From NCBI RefSeq assembly GCF_900110505.1, contig NZ_FODZ01000001.1, positions 397,856-461,855 of the forward strand: a stretch of 64,000 bases of DNA. The letters are read 5' to 3'. Source of the stretch: Luteibacter sp. UNC138MFCol5.1. GTDB lineage: Bacteria > Pseudomonadota > Gammaproteobacteria > Xanthomonadales > Rhodanobacteraceae. A model generated the notes under the pieces. It was not told the origin of the DNA and did not search any database. It saw nothing but the letters and a program-made list of their open reading frames with translations. The translations under genes were made by a program, and so were the position numbers. Below, piece after piece: positions 54,584-62,870 of this stretch; the stretch's first letter is position 1, and each line of letters starts with the position of its first letter.

Positions 54584-55327
54584 TCAGCGCCGGCCGCGCT
54601 CCGCCATGTGCAGACGAATGGCATCTTCGCCGATCTCCGCGAGCGCGCGCAGGCACTCCTGCTGGATCGCGTCGAGCCGCCGGGGCGCCGTGTCGAACAC
54701 GCACAGCGTGCCGATGACGAACCCATCGGGGGAGTGGAGGGGACACCCCGCGTAGAAACGGATGTGGGGCTCGCCCCGCACCAGCGGGTTGTCGCGGAAC
54801 CGGGCGTCGCCGCGTGCATCCTCGACCATGACCATGTCGTCGGCGAGCAGGACGTGGTTGCAGAACGCGAGATCGCGCGGCGTTTCGGTCGCCTCGACGC
54901 CATGGCGCGATTTGTACCACTGCCGGCGCGCGGTCAGGATCGCCACGACGGACGCCGAGGTGCCAGCCATGATCGCGGCGAGACGGGTGACGCGATCGAA
55001 CGCCGGATCGGGCTCGGTATCCAGCAGGCCGGTCCGGCCCACGGCACGCAACCTCGGTGTTTCGTCCGCCGGCACCGGGTACGCGGGGTCCTGGAGCGGG
55101 AGCAACTCTTCCGCGACGGCCGCCGCCGGGCGTGCCAACGCCGTGCGTTCCTCGAGCAGGCGCAACACGGCGGTTCGCCGCATCCGCCGATGCCCACCCG
55201 GCGTCTTCCACGATTCCACCGCGCCGCCCTCGATCCATTTCTGCGCCGTGCTAACGGAGATGCCAAGCAGCTCGGCCGCCTCACGGGTCGTCAGGGCAGG
55301 ATCGTGGTCGTCGGATGGGGTAGGCAT
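54584..55327 (-). CDS. HTH (MerR/excisionase-like)-GAF regulator
   Basis: A 247-residue protein fusing an N-terminal helix-turn-helix (about 10-60; LTTREAAELLGISVSTAQKWIEGGAVESWKTPGGHRRM) to a C-terminal GAF domain (about 90-245; VTRLAAIMAGTSASVVAILTARRQWYKS and FCNHVLLADDMVMVEDARGD). The HTH is of the HTH_17/excisionase type, with the wing motif TPGGHRR. The GAF resembles those sensing small molecules or redox state in Xanthomonadales and Pseudomonas. So a ligand or light/redox cue likely controls DNA binding. ATG 55327 is preferred over a GTG at 55336. It is divergent from the sugar porter over 348 bp. Confidence 0.82.
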   Translation of the reverse strand: MPTPSDDHDPALTTREAAELLGISVSTAQKWIEGGAVESWKTPGGHRRMRRTAVLRLLEERTALARPAAAVAEELLPLQDPAYPVPADETPRLRAVGRTGLLDTEPDPAFDRVTRLAAIMAGTSASVVAILTARRQWYKSRHGVEATETPRDLAFCNHVLLADDMVMVEDARGDARFRDNPLVRGEPHIRFYAGCPLHSPDGFVIGTLCVFDTAPRRLDAIQQECLRALAEIGEDAIRLHMAERGRR

Positions 55328-55675
55328 GGGGGGCACGTTCGAACGGTTTCCGTGGAAGTAAACAGACGGACGCTAACACAGCGCGACGTCCCGCCGGCTT
55401 GGCGAGACCTGCGCCTCGGGGCGCTCGACGACCGCACGCGTACCGCGCGGCGACAGACCGCGCCTGAATAGTCTTCGGGGTCGGATCACCCGTCGATCAT
55501 CGTTCCCGAGCATGCACCGGGACGGACGCGAACCCACGATAGCTTGCCGAAAACGCTTAAACCTCGGGCCCCGATTCCTCCGCCACGGGATCACCGCATG
55601 CCGACACCTCTCACACGGGCCGGATACATGCCGGGGCATCCAATGAAGGGATCGCATCGAGACAAGGATCCGCCT
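55328..55675. other. 348-bp divergent intergenic region
   Basis: It separates the HTH-GAF regulator from the sugar porter. The porter frame is open for the last 132 bp but lacks family sequence there. I see no strong palindrome or named site; GAAAACGCTTAAAC near 55550 only weakly resembles a LacI-type operator. Promoters for both genes must lie here. Confidence 0.5.
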
Positions 55676-57070
55676 GTGGACGCCGTCGTCACGCAGAAAG
55701 CCGCAACCGCCCATCCCAGGGCCGCCATCGTTACCACCTGTATCCTCGCCGCGCTCGCCGGCCTCATGTTCGGACTCGACATCGGCGTCATCTCGGGCGC
55801 TACGCAGTTCATCCAGTCCGACTTCCGGGTATCCGACCGGATGATCGAGTGGATCGTCAGTTCGATGATGGCAGGCGCCGCCGTCGGTGCGCTCGGCGCC
55901 GGCTGGATGTCGGCCGTCCTCGGGCGCAAGCGATCGCTGATCCTCGCCGGCCTTCTATTCATCGTGGGCTCGCTGTTCTGCGCCTTCGCACCGTCCGCTT
56001 CGATCCTGATCGTCGCGCGCTTCGTCCTGGGCCTCGCCATTGGCGTGGCGACCTTCACCGCGCCGCTCTACCTCGCCGAGGTGGCTCCCGAGAAGATCCG
56101 CGGGGCCATGATCTCGACGTACCAGCTCATGATCACCACCGGCATCCTGCTCGCCTTTCTGTCCGATACTGCCTTCAGCGCCAGCGGCAGCTGGCGCTGG
56201 ATGCTGGGCGTGATCGCGGCGCCGGGCGTGCTGTTCCTGCTCGGGCTGTTCTTCCTTCCCGACAGCCCGCGCTGGCTGATGATGCGCGGACGGCGCGACG
56301 ACGCGAAGGTGGTGCTCGCGAAGCTCCGCGGCGACGCGGCCGTGGTGGAAAAGGAGATGGCGGACATCGACGAGCAACTGAAGACCCCGCAGCACGGCTG
56401 GAGCATGTTCCGCGAGAACCGGAATTTCCGCCGCTCCGTCGGGCTTGGCGTCCTGCTCCAGGCGATGCAGCAATTCACCGGCATGAACGTGGTGATGTAC
56501 TACGCGCCGCGCATCTTCAAGGACATGGGGTACGACACCCATGCGCAGATGTGGTTCACGGCCGCGGTCGGCCTCACCAACGTGCTGGCGACCCTCATCG
56601 CCTTCGCCTTCGTCGACCGCCTCGGTCGCAAGCCGATCCTGTACGCGGGGTTCGCCATCATGGCGGTCGGCCTGGGCGTGGTCGGCACCATGATGGGTCT
56701 CGGCATTTCGTCGCGTGGCGAGCAGTTCTTCACCGTGGGCATGCTGCTGCTCTTCATCGTCGGCTTCGCGATGTCGGCCGGTCCGCTGATCTGGACGTTG
56801 TGCTCCGAGGTGCAGCCGTTGAAGGGGCGCGACTTCGGCATCGCCGTCTCGACGTTCACCAACTGGGTCACCAACATGATCGTCGGTGCCACGTTCCTCA
56901 CGCTGCTCAGCGGCATCGGTAACGCACCGACGTTCTGGCTGTACGCCGCGCTCAACGCGGTCTTCATCGCCATCACGTTCTGGCTCGTGCCCGAAACGAA
57001 GAATGTGACGCTGGAGCAGATCGAGCGAAACCTGATGAGCGGCAAGCCGTTGCGTCGCATCGGACAGTAG
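55676..57070 (+). CDS. galP: MFS sugar porter (GalP/AraE-like)
   Basis: A 464-residue inner-membrane sugar-proton symporter, the same length as E. coli GalP. The 12-span pattern carries the sugar-porter signatures LAGLMFGLDIGVISGATQFI, AGWMSAVLGRKRSL, PDSPRWLMMRGR, FVDRLGRKPIL and PETKNVTLEQIE. GTG 55676 is taken as the start because AAGGAT lies 6 bases upstream and it gives the usual short N-terminus; ATGs at 55598 and 55628 are alternatives. Substrate is probably a hexose or pentose. The divergent HTH-GAF gene may be its regulator; no sugar enzyme genes are next to it. Confidence 0.87.
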   Translation: MDAVVTQKAATAHPRAAIVTTCILAALAGLMFGLDIGVISGATQFIQSDFRVSDRMIEWIVSSMMAGAAVGALGAGWMSAVLGRKRSLILAGLLFIVGSLFCAFAPSASILIVARFVLGLAIGVATFTAPLYLAEVAPEKIRGAMISTYQLMITTGILLAFLSDTAFSASGSWRWMLGVIAAPGVLFLLGLFFLPDSPRWLMMRGRRDDAKVVLAKLRGDAAVVEKEMADIDEQLKTPQHGWSMFRENRNFRRSVGLGVLLQAMQQFTGMNVVMYYAPRIFKDMGYDTHAQMWFTAAVGLTNVLATLIAFAFVDRLGRKPILYAGFAIMAVGLGVVGTMMGLGISSRGEQFFTVGMLLLFIVGFAMSAGPLIWTLCSEVQPLKGRDFGIAVSTFTNWVTNMIVGATFLTLLSGIGNAPTFWLYAALNAVFIAITFWLVPETKNVTLEQIERNLMSGKPLRRIGQ

Positions 57071-57125
57071 TCGCCCACCTGCGATATCACGTCGCTAGCA
57101 GAAAATCATTTCCGCGTCCTGAGAA

Positions 57126-57157
57126 ACGGGGTCTCACTTCAAAAGTGCAGGCCCCGT
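57126..57157 (+). terminator. Hairpin downstream of sugar porter
   Basis: A two-part stem, ACGGGG with CCCCGT around CACTT with AAGTG, lies 56 bases past the porter stop. No T-run follows. It may end the porter transcript or belong to the leader of the pilin gene. The rest of 57071-57352 is markedly AT-richer than the window, and the pilin promoter must lie here. Confidence 0.45.
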
Positions 57158-57352
57158 CGCCGTTTCGGAAGAAAGTCAAAATTTTCTGAAAACTTCTATA
57201 TGGCGCGTAGGCCAAATCCGACAAACTTTTTTGGCGCTCGCGTTCGTCGAGCCTGGCTGGCGTGATGCGCGGGGAAGACCCCGTGTCTCCCCAAAGCCGA
57301 CATCGCCGGGAGGCGGTGTTGTTCACACATGAACGTATGAAAGGTTAATTGG

Positions 57353-57898
57353 ATGAACCTCAAAGTTATGACCTCCGCCCTGCTTCTCGCGGGCCTGGCA
57401 GCTCCGTCTGCCTTCGCATCGACCGGCACGATCAACTTCACCGGTTCGATCACCAACGTGACCTGCTCGGTCAACGGCGGTACCGAGAATGGTGGCCCGG
57501 ACTTCACCGTGGACATCGGCGCGGTCAGCGCCGGCGACTTCGCCAACGTGGGCGATGTCTCGGGCAGGATCGGCTTCCGCATCTACATCGGTAAGGACGG
57601 TGAGTCCGCCTGCGCGAACGACACCAAGGTATGGGCGACGTTCGAGAACGGCGCGACGGTCGATGCAGGCGGCGGCCTGAAAGTCACCGGCGGTGCCAGC
57701 GGCGTGCGCATTCGCCTGTTCGACAAGAACAACGATCCGATCGACATCCTCGGCAACAACCAGAACAACGGTGTGAAAGAGACGGTCGTCAACAACCAGG
57801 CCATCCTGGTCTACGGCGCCGGTTATGAGTCGACCGGCACGGTGGTCGCGGGCGGCGCGAACAGCTCGGTGGTCTACACGGTCCGCTACGAGAGCTAA
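57353..57898 (+). CDS. Major fimbrial pilin subunit (type 1 family)
   Basis: A 181-residue secreted pilin. The signal peptide (about 1-22, ending PSAFA) precedes a mature start STGTINFTGSITNVTCSVNGGT, the hallmark of FimA-type subunits with the first disulphide Cys. It ends VAGGANSSVVYTVRYES, the donor-strand C-terminus with Tyr. AAAGG lies about 8 bases upstream of the ATG. A 13-bp-stem hairpin follows the stop, then a chaperone remnant and an adhesin. Pilins require a chaperone and usher, neither of which is intact in this window. Confidence 0.87.
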   Translation: MNLKVMTSALLLAGLAAPSAFASTGTINFTGSITNVTCSVNGGTENGGPDFTVDIGAVSAGDFANVGDVSGRIGFRIYIGKDGESACANDTKVWATFENGATVDAGGGLKVTGGASGVRIRLFDKNNDPIDILGNNQNNGVKETVVNNQAILVYGAGYESTGTVVAGGANSSVVYTVRYES

Positions 57899-57908
57899 GC
57901 GAAGGGAA

Positions 57909-57937
57909 TCGATCGCCGGCCACTGGCCGGCGATCGA
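57909..57937 (+). terminator. Strong hairpin between pilin and downstream genes
   Basis: TCGATCGCCGGCC-ACT-GGCCGGCGATCGA, a perfect 13-bp stem with a 3-base loop, 10 bases past the pilin stop. No T-run follows. Such hairpins behind major pilins usually stabilise the pilin mRNA or attenuate read-through so that pilin is made in excess. Confidence 0.75.
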
Positions 57938-57967
57938 ACAGTCGAGATCTGAAGGAACGCCACGAAC

Positions 57968-58078
57968 ATGCAGGGAATCATCCGCAAAGTCATCGCGGCA
58001 GGTGCCATGTGCCTCCTCGGAACGACGCACGCCAGCGTCGTCATGAACGGTACGCGCTACGTGTACGGAGAGAGGTCG
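57968..58078 (+). pseudogene. N-terminal remnant of a PapD-type fimbrial chaperone
   Basis: The first 37 codons of a periplasmic chaperone. They encode a signal peptide (MQGIIRKVIAAGAMCLLGTTHA) followed by SVVMNGTRYVYGERS, the conserved first strand of PapD/FimC-type chaperones, where a GTR and Tyr are typical. A ribosome site (GAAGGA) lies about 10 bases upstream of the ATG. Instead of the next strand the frame passes directly into the adhesin gene at 58079. The remaining ~190 residues of the chaperone and a ~800-residue usher, which would normally follow, are absent. This looks like a deletion scar inside a pilin-chaperone-usher-adhesin operon. Confidence 0.75.
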
Positions 58079-59065
58079 ATGATGACGAAGAACGGAAAAC
58101 GAACCACGCTTGCCCTGCTCGCCCTTGTTTCGATCGGCGGAGCGGTGGAGGCCCGGGCCAACGGAGGTTGCACCTCGGTGAATGAGGCCACCTATCAGAT
58201 CGGGCAAACGACGTACATCGACGTTCATAATGCAATGGAGGTGGGCGACGTCGTGCAGAGGGGGGGCGCGTACGGCGAAGGCAAGGTGCTACTGAGTTGC
58301 GAGGAAGGGCTTGCCCATTTCAGAGGTTTCTATGTGAAGCCGACCGTGGGCGATCTGGTTCCGTTGCTTGTCAACAGCAAGCCCTCAGGCTTTGGCATCC
58401 GCGTGAAGATTCAGGAAAACGGCCAATCGGTCATACGCAGCTTTCCGCACGAATTCGACGAGTCTTTCGCGAAAGGCGAGGAGGTCACCAGCGCGGACGA
58501 TACCGTCTCCTACGAGGTCGAGAGGATGGCTGGCCCGGTCCTTTTCGGACGCGTCGATTCGGGGGAGATCGCGAAGCAGGCGGTGTCGTTGCCAAACATC
58601 AGCGCGCAACAGGTGTTCCGGACCATGGAAATCTTCTCCATGATCCTGCGCAGGCCGACCTGCACCATCACACCGGAGACCCTCGATCAGACGGTCAAGC
58701 TCGGCGACTACAATCTGAGTAACTTTGCGACACCCGATCGCGCGACGCCCTGGGTGCCGTTCAAGCTCACGGTGGAAGAATGCCCCGAGCCTCTCGGCAT
58801 GGTCGCGAGGTTCACTTTCGGCGGTACGGGCGACGCGGATGGAGACAATCCCGCTCTTTTCCGGCTGACGGGGCCGGAGAACGTGGGGCTGGAGCTGGGC
58901 GACGCCAATAAGAAGACGATGAGGCCGGGCCAACTCATCCGCACGCACGCCCTGGGCCCAGGCGAGGACTATGAGTTCTACGCGCGGTTGCGCGAGACGA
59001 AGCCGACGGTTCGCGGCGGCATCGTGAACCGCGACGTCACCGTGCTGGTCGATTTCGAGCGCTGA
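58079..59065 (+). CDS. Fimbrial tip adhesin-like protein
   Basis: A 328-residue secreted protein with an internal ATGATG start (58079/58082) behind GGAGAGAGG. Its own signal peptide is MTKNGKRTTLALLALVSIGGAVEARA. A receptor-binding-like domain (about 28-225) precedes a pilin domain from CTITPETLDQTVKLGDYNLSNF to the terminal VLVDFER. It has the same layout as the protein at 17705-18652. The frame is also continuous with the chaperone remnant from 57968, so a longer product with two signal peptides is possible, though less likely. The hairpin at 59076-59096 ends the locus. Confidence 0.78.
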   Translation: MMTKNGKRTTLALLALVSIGGAVEARANGGCTSVNEATYQIGQTTYIDVHNAMEVGDVVQRGGAYGEGKVLLSCEEGLAHFRGFYVKPTVGDLVPLLVNSKPSGFGIRVKIQENGQSVIRSFPHEFDESFAKGEEVTSADDTVSYEVERMAGPVLFGRVDSGEIAKQAVSLPNISAQQVFRTMEIFSMILRRPTCTITPETLDQTVKLGDYNLSNFATPDRATPWVPFKLTVEECPEPLGMVARFTFGGTGDADGDNPALFRLTGPENVGLELGDANKKTMRPGQLIRTHALGPGEDYEFYARLRETKPTVRGGIVNRDVTVLVDFER

Positions 59066-59075
59066 CGCGAACGCT

Positions 59076-59096
59076 GCCCCGCGCCTGCCACGGGGC
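59076..59096. terminator. Hairpin between convergent genes
   Basis: GCCCCG-cgcctgcca-CGGGGC, a 6-bp GC stem, lies between the adhesin stop and the stop of the glycosidase-like gene. It could terminate either transcript; no T-run is visible. Confidence 0.5.
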
Positions 59097-59109
59097 GGTG
59101 TTCGGACGA

Positions 59110-62100
59110 TCAGTACTCGGCGACAAGCTTGCGGAACGGCGTGGCGATGCGCACGCCATCGGCATCCCACGTCGCGGCCGCCTTGCCATCGATGGTCACC
59201 TTCCGTGGCTTCACGCGGTCCGGCCAGAACACGCGCACCGGCGTGCCGGCGGCGATGCCCTTGTCGAGCGTGATCGTCAACGTGCTTCCCGTGCGCCTCG
59301 CCGTCATGCTGAGCGAACCGTAGGTCACGGGCAGGCGGGAGATCGACAATCCCGGCCCCGCCACCCACGCCGGCGGCGCGCCGGGGAGCAGGTACAGCCC
59401 GTCGTCGGCGTCGCGCATCAGCATGCCGAAGATCGTGCGGGCGTACTCGGAGCCGATCCAGGTGTGTGGCATGTCGCCCAGATAGCCCGGGTGGCGGAGG
59501 CGCGAGTGGACGACCTCCGCCCACATGTTCCACTCGGGCGGCCGGCGATCGGCCACGACGTCGGCGAGCAGTTCCTGCGCGTCCGCCGGGCGGTTCAGGT
59601 AGACGTACGTCAGCACGTTGCGCAGCTCGTACGGTGTGTATGCGTAGAGTTCGCCTGGTGCCTTGCGCTTGCGCACGTCGGCGAGATAGCGGTCGAACGT
59701 GCGGGTCAGGGCGTCCCGCGGCAGCACGTCCATCTGTCCCGCGGGGTCGAGCGCGATCGACACGCTGGTCGGATCGCCGTCGCCGAGATCAGCGGCCGCG
59801 GGAATGGTGTCGACGCCCTTCCAGGCCATCGTGGCCTCGATCGATCTGCGGACCGACTCGCGTAGCGCGGCGTACTGTTCGCGCGCATAACGGGCGAGTT
59901 CCCTGTCGCCCCACTGGTCGGCGAGCCAGGCACCATCGTGCCAGCCCTTCAACGCCCAGTAATCGTCCCAGTAGCTGTGCGTCGGACTCGAATAGCCCTC
60001 GTGGCTGATCGACGGCGCGATGATGCCGTGGAAGCGCTCGGGAGCGGGAAGATTCGACAGATAGCCGGGCACCATCGTGCGCTCGCGCAGTTCCTGCATG
60101 AAGTGCAGGGCGGCGCGCACCTTGGGCTGGTAACCCTTCACGCTGGCGGCGCCACCGCCGAAGCGGGCCACGTCCGCGACCAGGTTGATGAATTCGCCCT
60201 GGCTGTCGTATTCGATGTCGGAGCCGAAGCCGGTGTTGACGCTGCCATCGGCGTTGAGGATCGGCGAGACCAGCCCGTTCTCGTGCACCGCGTGCGCCGC
60301 GTACCAGTCGAGATAATCGCGGGCGGTCTTCGTCTCGCCCATGCGCAGCAGGATCGACGCCGTGGCGGCACCGTCGCGGATGAACGAACGGTTGTAGTTG
60401 CGTGGACCCGCCTGCATCGCATGACCGGTCTGGTTCACCAGCATGTAGGCCGCCTGCGAGCGCAGGATGTCCACGAGGGTTTGATCGGGCAACGAGATGC
60501 CGACGCCGCCGAGGCGCTTCTGCCAGGCGGCGGAGACGTCGTCGGCGAGCCTGTCGAAGCCGTCGGCGGTGAGCGCCTTCCGGTCGATCGGCGGCGGCTC
60601 GGGCAGATGGCCCTTCGCATCGGCGGGCGAGTCGCCGAGCGGGAAGGCGACGACGACATCGCGCTGCTCGCCCGGTGCGAGATGCACGCGGTAGTCGAGC
60701 ATGCCGGCCGCGAGACCGTCGGCGTCATGCGCGTCGCGCGCGGAAGGCACCGTGCCGGCCGCCACCCGCGCGGTGATCTCGGTCTCGCCATGCGCGCCGA
60801 ACGGCGCGGCACCGGCGGCATCGACGGGCGTCAGCGACGCCATCAGCGTGCGGCCTTCGACGCGCACGTCGGTGTGCGCGCCATCGCCGGCGATGGCGAT
60901 GTCGTGGATGGGCGAGGGGCCGCCGTTCTGCCATGGTGGATTGACCTGGATCGGGCGCACGACGAGCGACAGCGTGCCGTCGACGGTCGCGGTGCCCTGG
61001 TTGCGCAGCCGATGGCGCAGCAGCACGACAGGCTGGCCGTCGCCTTCGACCGCGATCGCCTCGCTCGTCATCGACAGGCCCGGTTGCACCGTCCAGCGTA
61101 CCGACGGCATCGGCTTCCAGCCGTCGCGCAACGCGTGCGCGCGTTCCGCGCCATCCGATACGGCCGTGCGGCCGGACGCGTCGCGCCAGATCGCCTGGAT
61201 CTGCGGGCCGCCCTTGTACGGCTCGATGTCGCCGTACTCGTCGAAGATGGCCTTCTGCAGGCCGGCGGGCACACCGACCGCCGTCCAGTACACCTGCCGC
61301 ATGTGCAGCGACGAGGGAAACAGCGCGGCGTTCTCGCGCGACGCGGCGATCTGGTAGCGCTTCATCGCGGTCATGACGCGCGGAGGGCCGAGGAACCGCA
61401 GGCGCTCGATGCGCGGGGTCGCGCCGTTCTTCATGCCCACGACGAGCCGCAGCGCGCTCGCCTGGAAGGGCTCGCGGGCGGCGAGGTACGACGTGTCGCC
61501 GAGGCTACCCGGATCGCTGCCGACGGCGCGCCACTGGCCTGCGGCGTCGCGGGCTTCGAGCGTGGCGCCGTCGCGCGGCCCGTCCCAGGTCACCTCGATG
61601 CCCGCGATGTCGATCGGGCGGGGGAGGGCGATGTCGAGCTGCCGTGCGCCCTTCGGTCCCTTGCCGACGATCCCGCGCGAGGTGCCGTCGGCCCAGAGCG
61701 CGGCGCCGTCGCCCTTGCCGTCGAGGCCCGTGATCCGCGCGGTTTCGCTCGCCGCGAACGGCTCGAACTCGAACACGGAGACGCCCCAGTCCGCCGTGCG
61801 CGCCGGGGCGGCGAGGCGCACGTAACGTGCCTGCGTGGCGGGAAAGACGAGGTACTCGGTGCCACCCGGCGAGTCGGTCACGGCGTAGACCGGCTGGAAC
61901 GTCTTGCCGTCGACGGAGGTCTGGATCGAATACGACGCGGCGAATCCGCTATCCCAATGGATGCGTACGCCGCCGACCGAGGCGACCTTGCCCAGATCCA
62001 CCTGGAACCACTGGCCGGGGCTGAACGCACCGCCCCAGCGCGTGGCTTCATCCCCGTCGATCGCATGGGCCGGCGCGAGCGCGGGCACCTGCTGGGACGA

Positions 62101-62220
62101 GCTGCTGGCCTTCCAGCTTGCGCGTGGGGGCAGGCTTTCGGCGGCGAAAACGGGCGTCGCGAGCAGCGCGGCGAGCAGGAGCGTCAGCCGGGCGGGGCGG
62201 TGAGCGGTTCGGGCTTGCAT
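59110..62220 (-). CDS. Discoidin-domain six-hairpin glycosidase-like secreted protein
   Basis: A 1036-residue exported protein. The signal peptide (about 1-26, ending TPVFA) is followed by an F5/8 (discoidin) domain (about 30-155; GQWFQVDLGKVASVGGVRIHWD), a second beta-rich module (about 160-280), and a long helical region (about 560-930) with NYNRSFIRDGAATASILLRMGETKTARDYLDWY and HTWIGSEYARTIFGML, resembling six-hairpin glycosidases (GH15/65/78/94-like clans). The C-terminal part (about 940-1036) is a beta-sandwich. It probably acts on a plant or microbial polysaccharide; I cannot assign a family or the catalytic acids. A strong GGAGG precedes the ATG. It is monocistronic. Confidence 0.75.
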   Translation of the reverse strand: MQARTAHRPARLTLLLAALLATPVFAAESLPPRASWKASSSSQQVPALAPAHAIDGDEATRWGGAFSPGQWFQVDLGKVASVGGVRIHWDSGFAASYSIQTSVDGKTFQPVYAVTDSPGGTEYLVFPATQARYVRLAAPARTADWGVSVFEFEPFAASETARITGLDGKGDGAALWADGTSRGIVGKGPKGARQLDIALPRPIDIAGIEVTWDGPRDGATLEARDAAGQWRAVGSDPGSLGDTSYLAAREPFQASALRLVVGMKNGATPRIERLRFLGPPRVMTAMKRYQIAASRENAALFPSSLHMRQVYWTAVGVPAGLQKAIFDEYGDIEPYKGGPQIQAIWRDASGRTAVSDGAERAHALRDGWKPMPSVRWTVQPGLSMTSEAIAVEGDGQPVVLLRHRLRNQGTATVDGTLSLVVRPIQVNPPWQNGGPSPIHDIAIAGDGAHTDVRVEGRTLMASLTPVDAAGAAPFGAHGETEITARVAAGTVPSARDAHDADGLAAGMLDYRVHLAPGEQRDVVVAFPLGDSPADAKGHLPEPPPIDRKALTADGFDRLADDVSAAWQKRLGGVGISLPDQTLVDILRSQAAYMLVNQTGHAMQAGPRNYNRSFIRDGAATASILLRMGETKTARDYLDWYAAHAVHENGLVSPILNADGSVNTGFGSDIEYDSQGEFINLVADVARFGGGAASVKGYQPKVRAALHFMQELRERTMVPGYLSNLPAPERFHGIIAPSISHEGYSSPTHSYWDDYWALKGWHDGAWLADQWGDRELARYAREQYAALRESVRRSIEATMAWKGVDTIPAAADLGDGDPTSVSIALDPAGQMDVLPRDALTRTFDRYLADVRKRKAPGELYAYTPYELRNVLTYVYLNRPADAQELLADVVADRRPPEWNMWAEVVHSRLRHPGYLGDMPHTWIGSEYARTIFGMLMRDADDGLYLLPGAPPAWVAGPGLSISRLPVTYGSLSMTARRTGSTLTITLDKGIAAGTPVRVFWPDRVKPRKVTIDGKAAATWDADGVRIATPFRKLVAEY

Positions 62221-62324: not shown

Positions 62325-62870
62325 ATGCGCAATCCACTACAGGAACAGCTGCTCAAGGCCGGCCTGGTCAAGAAGGACAAGGCTGCGAAGATCGTGCGCG
62401 ATCAGGCGAAGCAGCGCCAGGGCAAGGCGCCGGCGCCGGCCGCCGAAGAACAGGTGGACGCCCGTCGCCTGCAGGCCGAGCGTGCCGAGCGCGACCGCGC
62501 GCTGGCCGCCGAACGCAACGCCGAGGCGCGCGCGAAGGAAATCCGCGCGCAGGTACGCCAGATCGTCGAGACCACGCGTGTGAAGCGCGACGGCGACGTG
62601 GCTTACCGTTTCACCGATGGCGAGAAGATCGCCACGCTGCTCGTCAACGAGTCGCTGCGGGCGCAGCTCGCGTCGGGCGCGCTGGTCATCGCACGGCTCG
62701 GCGACAGCTATGAGCTGATTCCGCGCGGTCCCGCCGACAAGATCCACGCGCGCTCGCCCGAGACGATCGTGCTCGACCATGGGCGCAAGGACGGTGACGC
62801 GGTGCAGACCGAGGAAGAGATCGACGACTACTACAAGCAGTTCGTCGTCCCCGACGACCTGATCTGGTAA
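62325..62870 (+). CDS. yaiL: DUF2058 protein (YaiL-like)
   Basis: A 181-residue soluble protein, the length of E. coli YaiL. It begins MRNPLQEQLLKAGLVKKDKAAK, followed by a long charged, probably coiled-coil stretch rich in Ala, Arg and Glu (about 30-90) and a compact domain with VAYRFTDGEKIATLLVNESLRAQLASG and YYKQFVVPDDLIW. AAGGC lies about 12 bases upstream of the ATG. Function is unknown in all organisms. The epimerase-type gene follows 10 bp after its stop, so the two may share a transcript. Confidence 0.88.
   Translation: MRNPLQEQLLKAGLVKKDKAAKIVRDQAKQRQGKAPAPAAEEQVDARRLQAERAERDRALAAERNAEARAKEIRAQVRQIVETTRVKRDGDVAYRFTDGEKIATLLVNESLRAQLASGALVIARLGDSYELIPRGPADKIHARSPETIVLDHGRKDGDAVQTEEEIDDYYKQFVVPDDLIW

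What the first reader, a model, noticed from the sequence alone, without database searches (positions are those of the whole stretch)
57353..59065. Chaperone-usher fimbrial operon collapsed by an in-frame deletion: chaperone start fused to tip adhesin
Seen: after the pilin, an ATG with its own ribosome site starts a peptide with a signal sequence and SVVMNGTRYVYGERS, the PapD-type chaperone first strand. The frame then continues without a stop into an adhesin that has its own signal peptide and ribosome site. Known: such operons run pilin-chaperone-usher-adhesin. Inference: one deletion of about 3 kb removed most of the chaperone and all of the usher and joined the ends in frame. The surviving subunits could be assembled by machinery encoded elsewhere, or be decaying, or the fusion could carry a new function.
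Basis: partly seen in the sequence, partly recalled or inferred. Interest (0 to 1): 0.7.

Follow-up and report, generated by a model that had tools for sequence, protein, structure and literature searches.

The report
Recurrent fimbria-secretion operon deletion scar
In this Luteibacter genome the first 33 codons of a fimbrial chaperone gene run straight into a tip-adhesin gene, a scar that nine of 23 genomes examined in the genus share at the same chaperone codon and that likely arose many separate times, each time by loss of a roughly 15-kb operon predicted to build a fimbria together with a type IV secretion machine.

Summary
In detail: a 33-codon chaperone start is joined in frame to a two-domain tip adhesin. 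The interpretation needs two corrections. (1) The loss is not about 3 kb. In 9 of 23 Luteibacter genomes the same flanks hold an intact operon: pilin, chaperone, usher, Trb-type type IV secretion system, transglycosylase-like gene, adhesin. Between the sites used lie 14.3-16.2 kb there. (2) It is not a one-off. Nine genomes, this one included, carry a deletion whose left end falls at the same codon, and can be placed at the same nucleotide, of the chaperone. Right ends fall at four sites, one seen in five genomes and one in two. On an rpoB+gyrB tree, irreversible losses need at least eight events. The remnants look young: pilin and remaining adhesin frames are open, and dN/dS stays low even in an orphan adhesin fragment. 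An intact chaperone of Luteibacter sp. 329MFSha matches the window's first 33 residues 33/33, then diverges. I found no repeat, insertion element or special hairpin that explains the fixed break; one right site shows modest similarity to the left. I read this as a young loss scar at a deletion hotspot, pilin and adhesin orphaned. The hotspot's mechanism is unsolved.

The parts
55544..57070 (+). sugar-porter-like transporter (name from sequence look, no profile run), left flank of the locus
   Evidence: ORF; lies left of the pilin in 15 other pilin-bearing genomes (13, G007 and G008); reduced to a remnant in G012 and not found in G010's stretch; next to DUF2058 in the empty sites of G016 and G017
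57353..57898 (+). major fimbrial pilin, orphaned
   Evidence: PF00419 E 5.7e-12; orthologues at 55-78% identity in 17 other Luteibacter genomes
57909..57937 (+). perfect 14-bp inverted repeat between pilin and chaperone start; a hairpin, perfect or not, is predicted here in all 18 pilin-bearing genomes
   Evidence: (z -3.66)
57968..58066 (+). first 33 codons of the PapD-type chaperone gene (signal peptide and first strand)
   Evidence: 33/33 identical to P0039, intact chaperone with PF00345 and PF02753
58064..58066 (.). deletion junction; all nine junctions can be placed between the first and second base of this codon (58064|58065)
58067..58078 (+). remnant of the tail of the transglycosylase-like gene with the adhesin's ribosome site
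   Evidence: matches GGAGAGAGGT before the adhesin in sister genome G012 and GGAAAGAGG in G002/G022
57968..59065 (+). chance in-frame fusion ORF, 365 aa
   Evidence: same fusion in P0001; not in frame in G004 or the class-a genomes
58079..59065 (+). two-domain tip adhesin (receptor-binding-like N domain plus pilin domain)
   Evidence: PF00419 at residues 188-326; AlphaFold2 pLDDT 88.7; Foldseek hits CupB6, LpfD, FimH over both domains
59110..62220 (-). large secreted glycosidase-like gene (name from sequence look), right flank
   Evidence: near full-length match at 70-86% in 12 other genomes; beside the adhesin or its fragment in seven of these, in G002 and G009 with a lipoprotein-like gene between
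62328..62870 (+). conserved gene named DUF2058 from memory; right outer flank
   Evidence: found in 23 of 23 genomes

Best explanation
Compared with its intact relatives, the locus is most likely the scar of a deletion that joined codon 33 of a fimbrial chaperone gene to the end of a transglycosylase-like gene just before a tip-adhesin gene, and it likely removed about 15 kb holding the rest of the chaperone, the usher and a Trb-type type IV secretion system. Shown: intact operon between the same flanks in related genomes; nine genomes with the left end at the same codon; four right-end sites. Inferred: at least eight separate, evolutionarily young events; a break-and-join that needs little or no homology (or a site-preferring recombinase) and prefers one site in the chaperone gene and a few sites near the 3' end of the operon; selection against a costly or phage-exposed machine that lets the deletions rise. 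The surviving pilin and adhesin most likely no longer build their own fimbria; borrowing of another usher is possible in this genome but untested.
For: Intact operon with the same pilin and adhesin in 8 genomes on one contig and in G007 on two contigs. Operon content in G002: PapD_N, PapD_C, Usher, TrbB, TrbC, TrbD, TrbE, TrbG, TrbI and TrbL each over a curated cut-off; TrbH and TrbJ below it. Left end at the same codon in 9 of 9. Operon-type TrbE (75% identity or more) in 0 of the 14 other Luteibacter genomes, so it did not move elsewhere in the assemblies; the one match among them at E<=1e-150 is 39% identical, in G016. Tree with deletions scattered among intact sisters; local pilin and adhesin trees pair G010 with intact G019 and G004 with intact G022, 99-100% support. 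Youth: pilin frames open in all nine; adhesin-fragment dN/dS 0.23 between G005 and G018, both class a, against 0.11-0.40 in the eight other pairs. Parent-type chaperone in 329MFSha. Junctions of G012 and G004 found again in two named public records.
Against: No motif explains the left site: wobble bases differ between genomes, and at analogous sites in intact genomes the two ends share only 0-6 bases. Similarity of left and right sites is at background for b and d and mixed for c; for class a the 20 bases before the break are modestly alike, 7-10 of 20, in the top 2-22% of positions in the eight intact genomes, so a weak homology effect is not excluded there. No shared insertion sequence: none at the nine junctions read; among the eight genomes whose transporter-pilin stretch I read, only G018 has an IS-like pair. 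The count of events assumes losses are not reversed, yet the locus does move: G006's operon genes do not follow the species tree. Over the 300 nt before the break only 3 of 9 deleted genomes have an intact genome as nearest neighbour. Some tree nodes have only 71-87% support. G021 has a deletion with another left end.
Confidence: 0.75

Rival explanations
1. One ancient deletion allele was shared by the genus, and intact operons were regained later by recombination in the flanks of some species; the other right ends are secondary.
For: The operon of G006 is exchanged relative to the species tree, so allele exchange happens; class a occurs in five genomes with the same two ends; 6 of 9 deleted genomes have a deleted genome as nearest neighbour over 300 nt.
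Against: Right ends b, c and d share the left end but cannot be derived from class a by ordinary recombination. Pilin and adhesin-C trees place G010 and G004 beside intact sisters. The adhesin fragment shows no relaxed constraint.
Confidence: 0.12
2. The chaperone-start peptide and the orphan pilin and adhesin are a reduced but working system assembled by another usher, and the truncation is selected as such.
For: Own genome has two other intact-looking ushers (832- and 881-aa open frames); pilin and adhesin frames are open; fusion shared by P0001.
Against: What follows the 33 codons differs in frame and content among the nine genomes; in G008 the adhesin is gone but for its last codons; G001, G003 and G008 show only a weakly scoring usher type. 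Recent deletion explains the open frames equally well.
Confidence: 0.1
3. Assembly or database artefact.
Against: Same left end in six single-contig genomes (G001, G003, G005, G008, G010, G018); a 98% identical fusion protein on a contig of another length; the junctions of G012 and G004 are present in the named records NZ_FOBU01000001.1 and NZ_JAAQQR010000003.1, and the latter's title states the same length as the contig held.
Confidence: 0.01

Closest known systems
Chaperone-usher fimbrial operons (Fim/Lpf-like, PF00419/PF00345/PF00577)
   Same: pilin, PapD-type chaperone, usher and two-domain tip adhesin in this order in the intact relatives
   Different: a Trb-type T4SS and a transglycosylase-like gene sit between usher and adhesin; in the window chaperone and usher are gone
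IncP-type Trb conjugation/T4SS cluster (TrbB-TrbL)
   Same: TrbB, C, D, E, G, I, L recognised over cut-offs, and weak TrbH and TrbJ, in the intact relative G002
   Different: inside a fimbrial operon; no coupling protein of PF02534 at the operon's coordinates; relaxase not searched
Recurrent large deletions at fixed ends caused by insertion sequences or site-specific recombinases (general knowledge, recalled)
   Same: one end reused exactly in lineages that look independent
   Different: no insertion sequence, repeat or recombination-site motif found at either end
X-T4SS of Xanthomonadales (PMC6536674, passages read)
   Same: another chromosomal T4SS known in Luteibacter, including 329MFSha, OK325, UNCMF331Sha3.1 and L. 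yeojuensis SU11
   Different: vir-type bacteria-killing locus; in this paper chaperone-usher and fimbria occur 0 times and trbE only in a reference title

Membership tests
PapD-type periplasmic chaperone | PapD_N and PapD_C domains | tested here: not met
   window remnant has only 33 codons, no Pfam chaperone hit; the intact protein P0039 has both
PapD-type periplasmic chaperone | descent from a chaperone gene | tested here: met
   33/33 identity to the N terminus of P0039
Chaperone-usher operon (complete) | own chaperone and usher next to pilin | tested here: not met
   no usher at the window locus; the genome's two ushers lie about 0.2 and 0.55 Mb away on the same contig
Two-domain tip adhesin | N-terminal binding-like domain plus C-terminal pilin domain | tested here: met
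   PF00419 on C half; model and PDB matches LpfD, CupB6, FimH
Two-domain tip adhesin | receptor binding | not testable with these tools
   needs binding assay
Trb-type T4SS (intact relatives) | VirB4, VirB11, VirB9, VirB10, VirB6, VirB2 and VirB3 homologues | tested here: met
   TrbE, TrbB, TrbG, TrbI, TrbL, TrbC, TrbD in G002
Trb-type T4SS (intact relatives) | coupling protein and relaxase in the cluster | tested here: inconclusive
   no PF02534 match at the operon's coordinates in the nine intact genomes, though each genome has such genes elsewhere; relaxase not searched
Insertion-sequence-mediated deletion | insertion sequence or direct repeat at the ends | tested here: not met
   junctions read in nine genomes; shared bases 0-6; only modest similarity at class a
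Site-specific recombination | conserved recognition sequence at both ends | tested here: not met
   left site varies at wobble positions, right sites differ
Site-specific recombination | a recombinase acting on the site | not tested
   no recombinase conserved between transporter and pilin in the eight genomes read; none tested

The most novel reading that the evidence does not exclude
Luteibacter carries a programmed, one-way switch: an unidentified site-specific nuclease or recombinase cuts at one fixed place in the chaperone gene and at a few places near the end of the operon, throwing out a 15-kb fimbria-plus-T4SS machine so often that half of the species representatives with the pilin have lost it.
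Probability: 0.17. Interest if true: 0.85.

Novelty: new variant of a known kind. Interest (0 to 1): 0.62.

Why it matters
Two things would interest a specialist. First, a hybrid operon that places a Trb-type secretion system inside a chaperone-usher operon, found in two genera; six searches of the paper library found no description of it. Second, a large deletion that reuses the same left nucleotide in perhaps eight or nine lineages without repeats or insertion sequences, which known deletion mechanisms do not readily explain and which can be tested by PCR on cultures of intact strains. It also warns that species-representative genomes may record recent losses.

Tried and rejected
Hairpin between pilin and chaperone as the cause: perfect arms of 10 bp or more in 9 of 9 deleted and 4 of 9 intact genomes (Fisher p 0.029), but folding shows a strong hairpin, perfect or not, in all 18, and its distance to the break varies by 25 bases among the deleted genomes, so I dropped it.

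Homology between ends: 8 intact genomes scored at three window sizes. Sites b and d do not stand out and c only here and there; class a shows 7-10 of 20 matching bases before the break (top 2-22% of positions), which fades with the 12- and 30-base windows. Not enough to explain a fixed break, but not nothing. Conserved DNA structure at the left site: none seen in 8 foldings. Rfam, window 55000-60000: no match. Recombinase beside the locus: none conserved in the eight genomes read; the genes between transporter and pilin there are NorR-, flavohaemoprotein- and TMEM175-like by eye.

Horizontal spread of one deleted allele: judged less likely from the pilin and adhesin trees. Nearest neighbours over 300 nt, 17 genomes compared: 3 of 9 deleted genomes (G003, G004, G010) have an intact genome as nearest, 6 of 9 a deleted one, so this test is mixed.

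Discarded results: the tree (loci not oriented; redone); the MFS rows (index shift suspected).

Papers: searches returned none; seven, none about this by title; one, of which I read passages; listings only, nothing relevant by title.

Full report
What is in the window. One search confirms a pilin gene (57353-57898) followed by one open frame of 365 codons (57968-59065). The frame starts with a signal peptide and SVVMNGTRYVY and passes into an adhesin with its own ATG at 58079 behind AGAGAGG. The adhesin has a fimbrial C-terminal domain (PF00419, E 8.2e-14). An AlphaFold2 model from 16 sequences (pLDDT 88.7) matches the two-domain tip adhesins CupB6, LpfD and FimH over both halves (TM-score to LpfD 0.55; sequence identity only 12-17% in those rows). 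The chaperone start has no Pfam chaperone hit and a weak NCBIfam chaperone hit (E 0.011). Its origin is shown: the intact chaperone of Luteibacter sp. 329MFSha (P0039, 239 aa, both PapD domains) is identical to the window for 33 of 33 residues and then continues as a chaperone. That strain's adhesin (P0002) is only 61% identical to the window's, so the adhesin evolves fast or was exchanged.

What was lost. In 23 Luteibacter genomes I found the locus state as follows. Nine are intact: G002, G006, G009, G011, G013, G014, G019, G022 on one contig, and G007 (80% complete, 510 contigs) on two. Nine are deleted with the same left end: G000, G001, G003, G004, G005, G008, G010, G012, G018. One is deleted with another left end, just before the pilin (G021). 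Two are empty, with transporter next to DUF2058 (G016, G017). Two could not be resolved (G015, G020). The intact order is transporter, pilin, chaperone, usher, Trb genes, transglycosylase-like gene, adhesin, and in several genomes a lipoprotein-like gene; in some, other genes stand between transporter and pilin. In G002, profiles identify PapD_N and PapD_C, Usher, TrbB, TrbC, TrbD, TrbE, TrbG, TrbI and TrbL over a cut-off, with TrbH and TrbJ below it and the pilin just below FimA's; the transglycosylase-like gene has no Pfam hit and is named by eye. The distance between the left site and the analogous right sites a, b and c in intact genomes is 14.3 to 16.2 kb. The operon's own TrbE type (75% identity or more) is in the nine intact Luteibacter genomes and in 3 others (G131, G144, G147) of 233 genomes searched in the family, and in none of the 14 other Luteibacter genomes; one of these, G016, has a 39% match. 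In G147 and G144 of another genus, pilin-, chaperone- and usher-like genes stand before the Trb genes (in G144 with usher before chaperone), and an adhesin-like gene, 31 and 28% identical, follows the transglycosylase-like gene; G131 shows Trb genes without fimbrial genes in the stretch fetched. No coupling protein of PF02534 lies at the operon.

The repeated break. The left end is readable in all nine deleted genomes: the chaperone start runs up to MN-x-TR-[YF]-[VI] and the first base of the next codon. Every junction is compatible with one and the same crossing point, between the first and second base of that codon. Two of the junctions were found again in named public records. Right ends fall into four classes: a, inside the adhesin's pilin domain (G001, G003, G005, G010, G018); b, the tail of the transglycosylase-like gene (G000, G004); c, the middle of that gene (G012); d, the last codons of the adhesin (G008). 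Within class a, both ends can be placed at the same bases in all five.

How many events. The rpoB+gyrB tree (23 genomes, 6,546 columns) puts G004 beside intact G022, G010 beside intact G019 and G006, and G001, G008 and G003 as successive branches to intact G011 and G013. G000 and G012 are sisters with different right ends. If losses are never reversed, this needs at least eight events: G000, G012, G004, G010, G005 with G018, G001, G003, G008. Class a then arose at least four times. Pilin and adhesin-C trees agree for G010/G019 and G004/G022 (99-100% support), and for G003/G013 with 45% and 95%. The adhesin fragment of G005 and G018, which has lost its start, still shows dN/dS 0.23 with dS 0.88; had both inherited an old deletion, relaxed constraint would be expected. 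These two may therefore be separate events as well. Against this, the operon can be exchanged: G006's pilin, usher and adhesin do not sit with its sister G019, and only 3 of 9 deleted genomes have an intact genome as nearest neighbour over the 300 nt before the break.

How it works. The chance in-frame fusion is not the product under selection: the frame after codon 33 differs among the nine genomes, and in G008 the adhesin is gone but for its last codons. The common feature is loss of the machine. That loss is favoured by cost or by phages that use Trb pili is my inference from general knowledge; no call tests it. The fixed left end points to a mutational hotspot. I looked for repeats, homology, hairpins, insertion sequences, RNA families and nearby recombinases and found none that fits. 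The nearest to a lead is a modest similarity of the 20 bases before the left site and before right site a (7-10 of 20). My commitment is a break-and-join that needs little homology, with a preferred site. Its agent is unknown.

Remaining function. The window genome keeps two other ushers with open frames, about 0.2 and 0.55 Mb away. Borrowing is possible here, but G001, G003 and G008 show only a weakly scoring type (likely Csu-like, a recalled name) and still have open pilin genes, so recent loss explains the open frames more simply.

Novelty. Chaperone-usher operons, Trb systems and deletion hotspots are each known. Library searches found no report of the hybrid operon or its loss; the library lacks most subscription journals.

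Noticed in passing
L056:349-6121 with L038:6886-18912 (G002): Hybrid operon with a Trb-type T4SS between usher and tip adhesin; also in another genus (L164, L165).
   Followed up: partly
L043/L060 (G021), just before the pilin start: Another variant: deletion with left end at the pilin's ribosome site and right end near the start of the transglycosylase-like gene.
   Followed up: partly
L046, L040, L042 (G011, G007, G014): Two adhesin genes in tandem at the end of the operon; the second copies are 34-38% identical to the window's.
   Followed up: no
L045/L062 (G006): Operon genes are far from those of the sister species G019 although rpoB and gyrB are close: likely allele exchange.
   Followed up: partly
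L035 (G012), left of the pilin: The flanking transporter is itself reduced to a remnant in the sister genome G012.
   Followed up: no
L049 (G018), about 0.4 to 1.5 kb before the pilin: An IS3-like two-ORF element between transporter and pilin (named by eye).
   Followed up: no
L033:3622-8089 and L034:3430-7978 (window's genome): Two other chaperone-usher operons, one Fim-like and one Csu-like by eye, with open usher frames.
   Followed up: partly
L038:8973-11978 and relatives: In BLAST the TrbL-like protein aligns only over its first 320-500 of about 1000 residues among species; the C-terminal part looks hypervariable.
   Followed up: no
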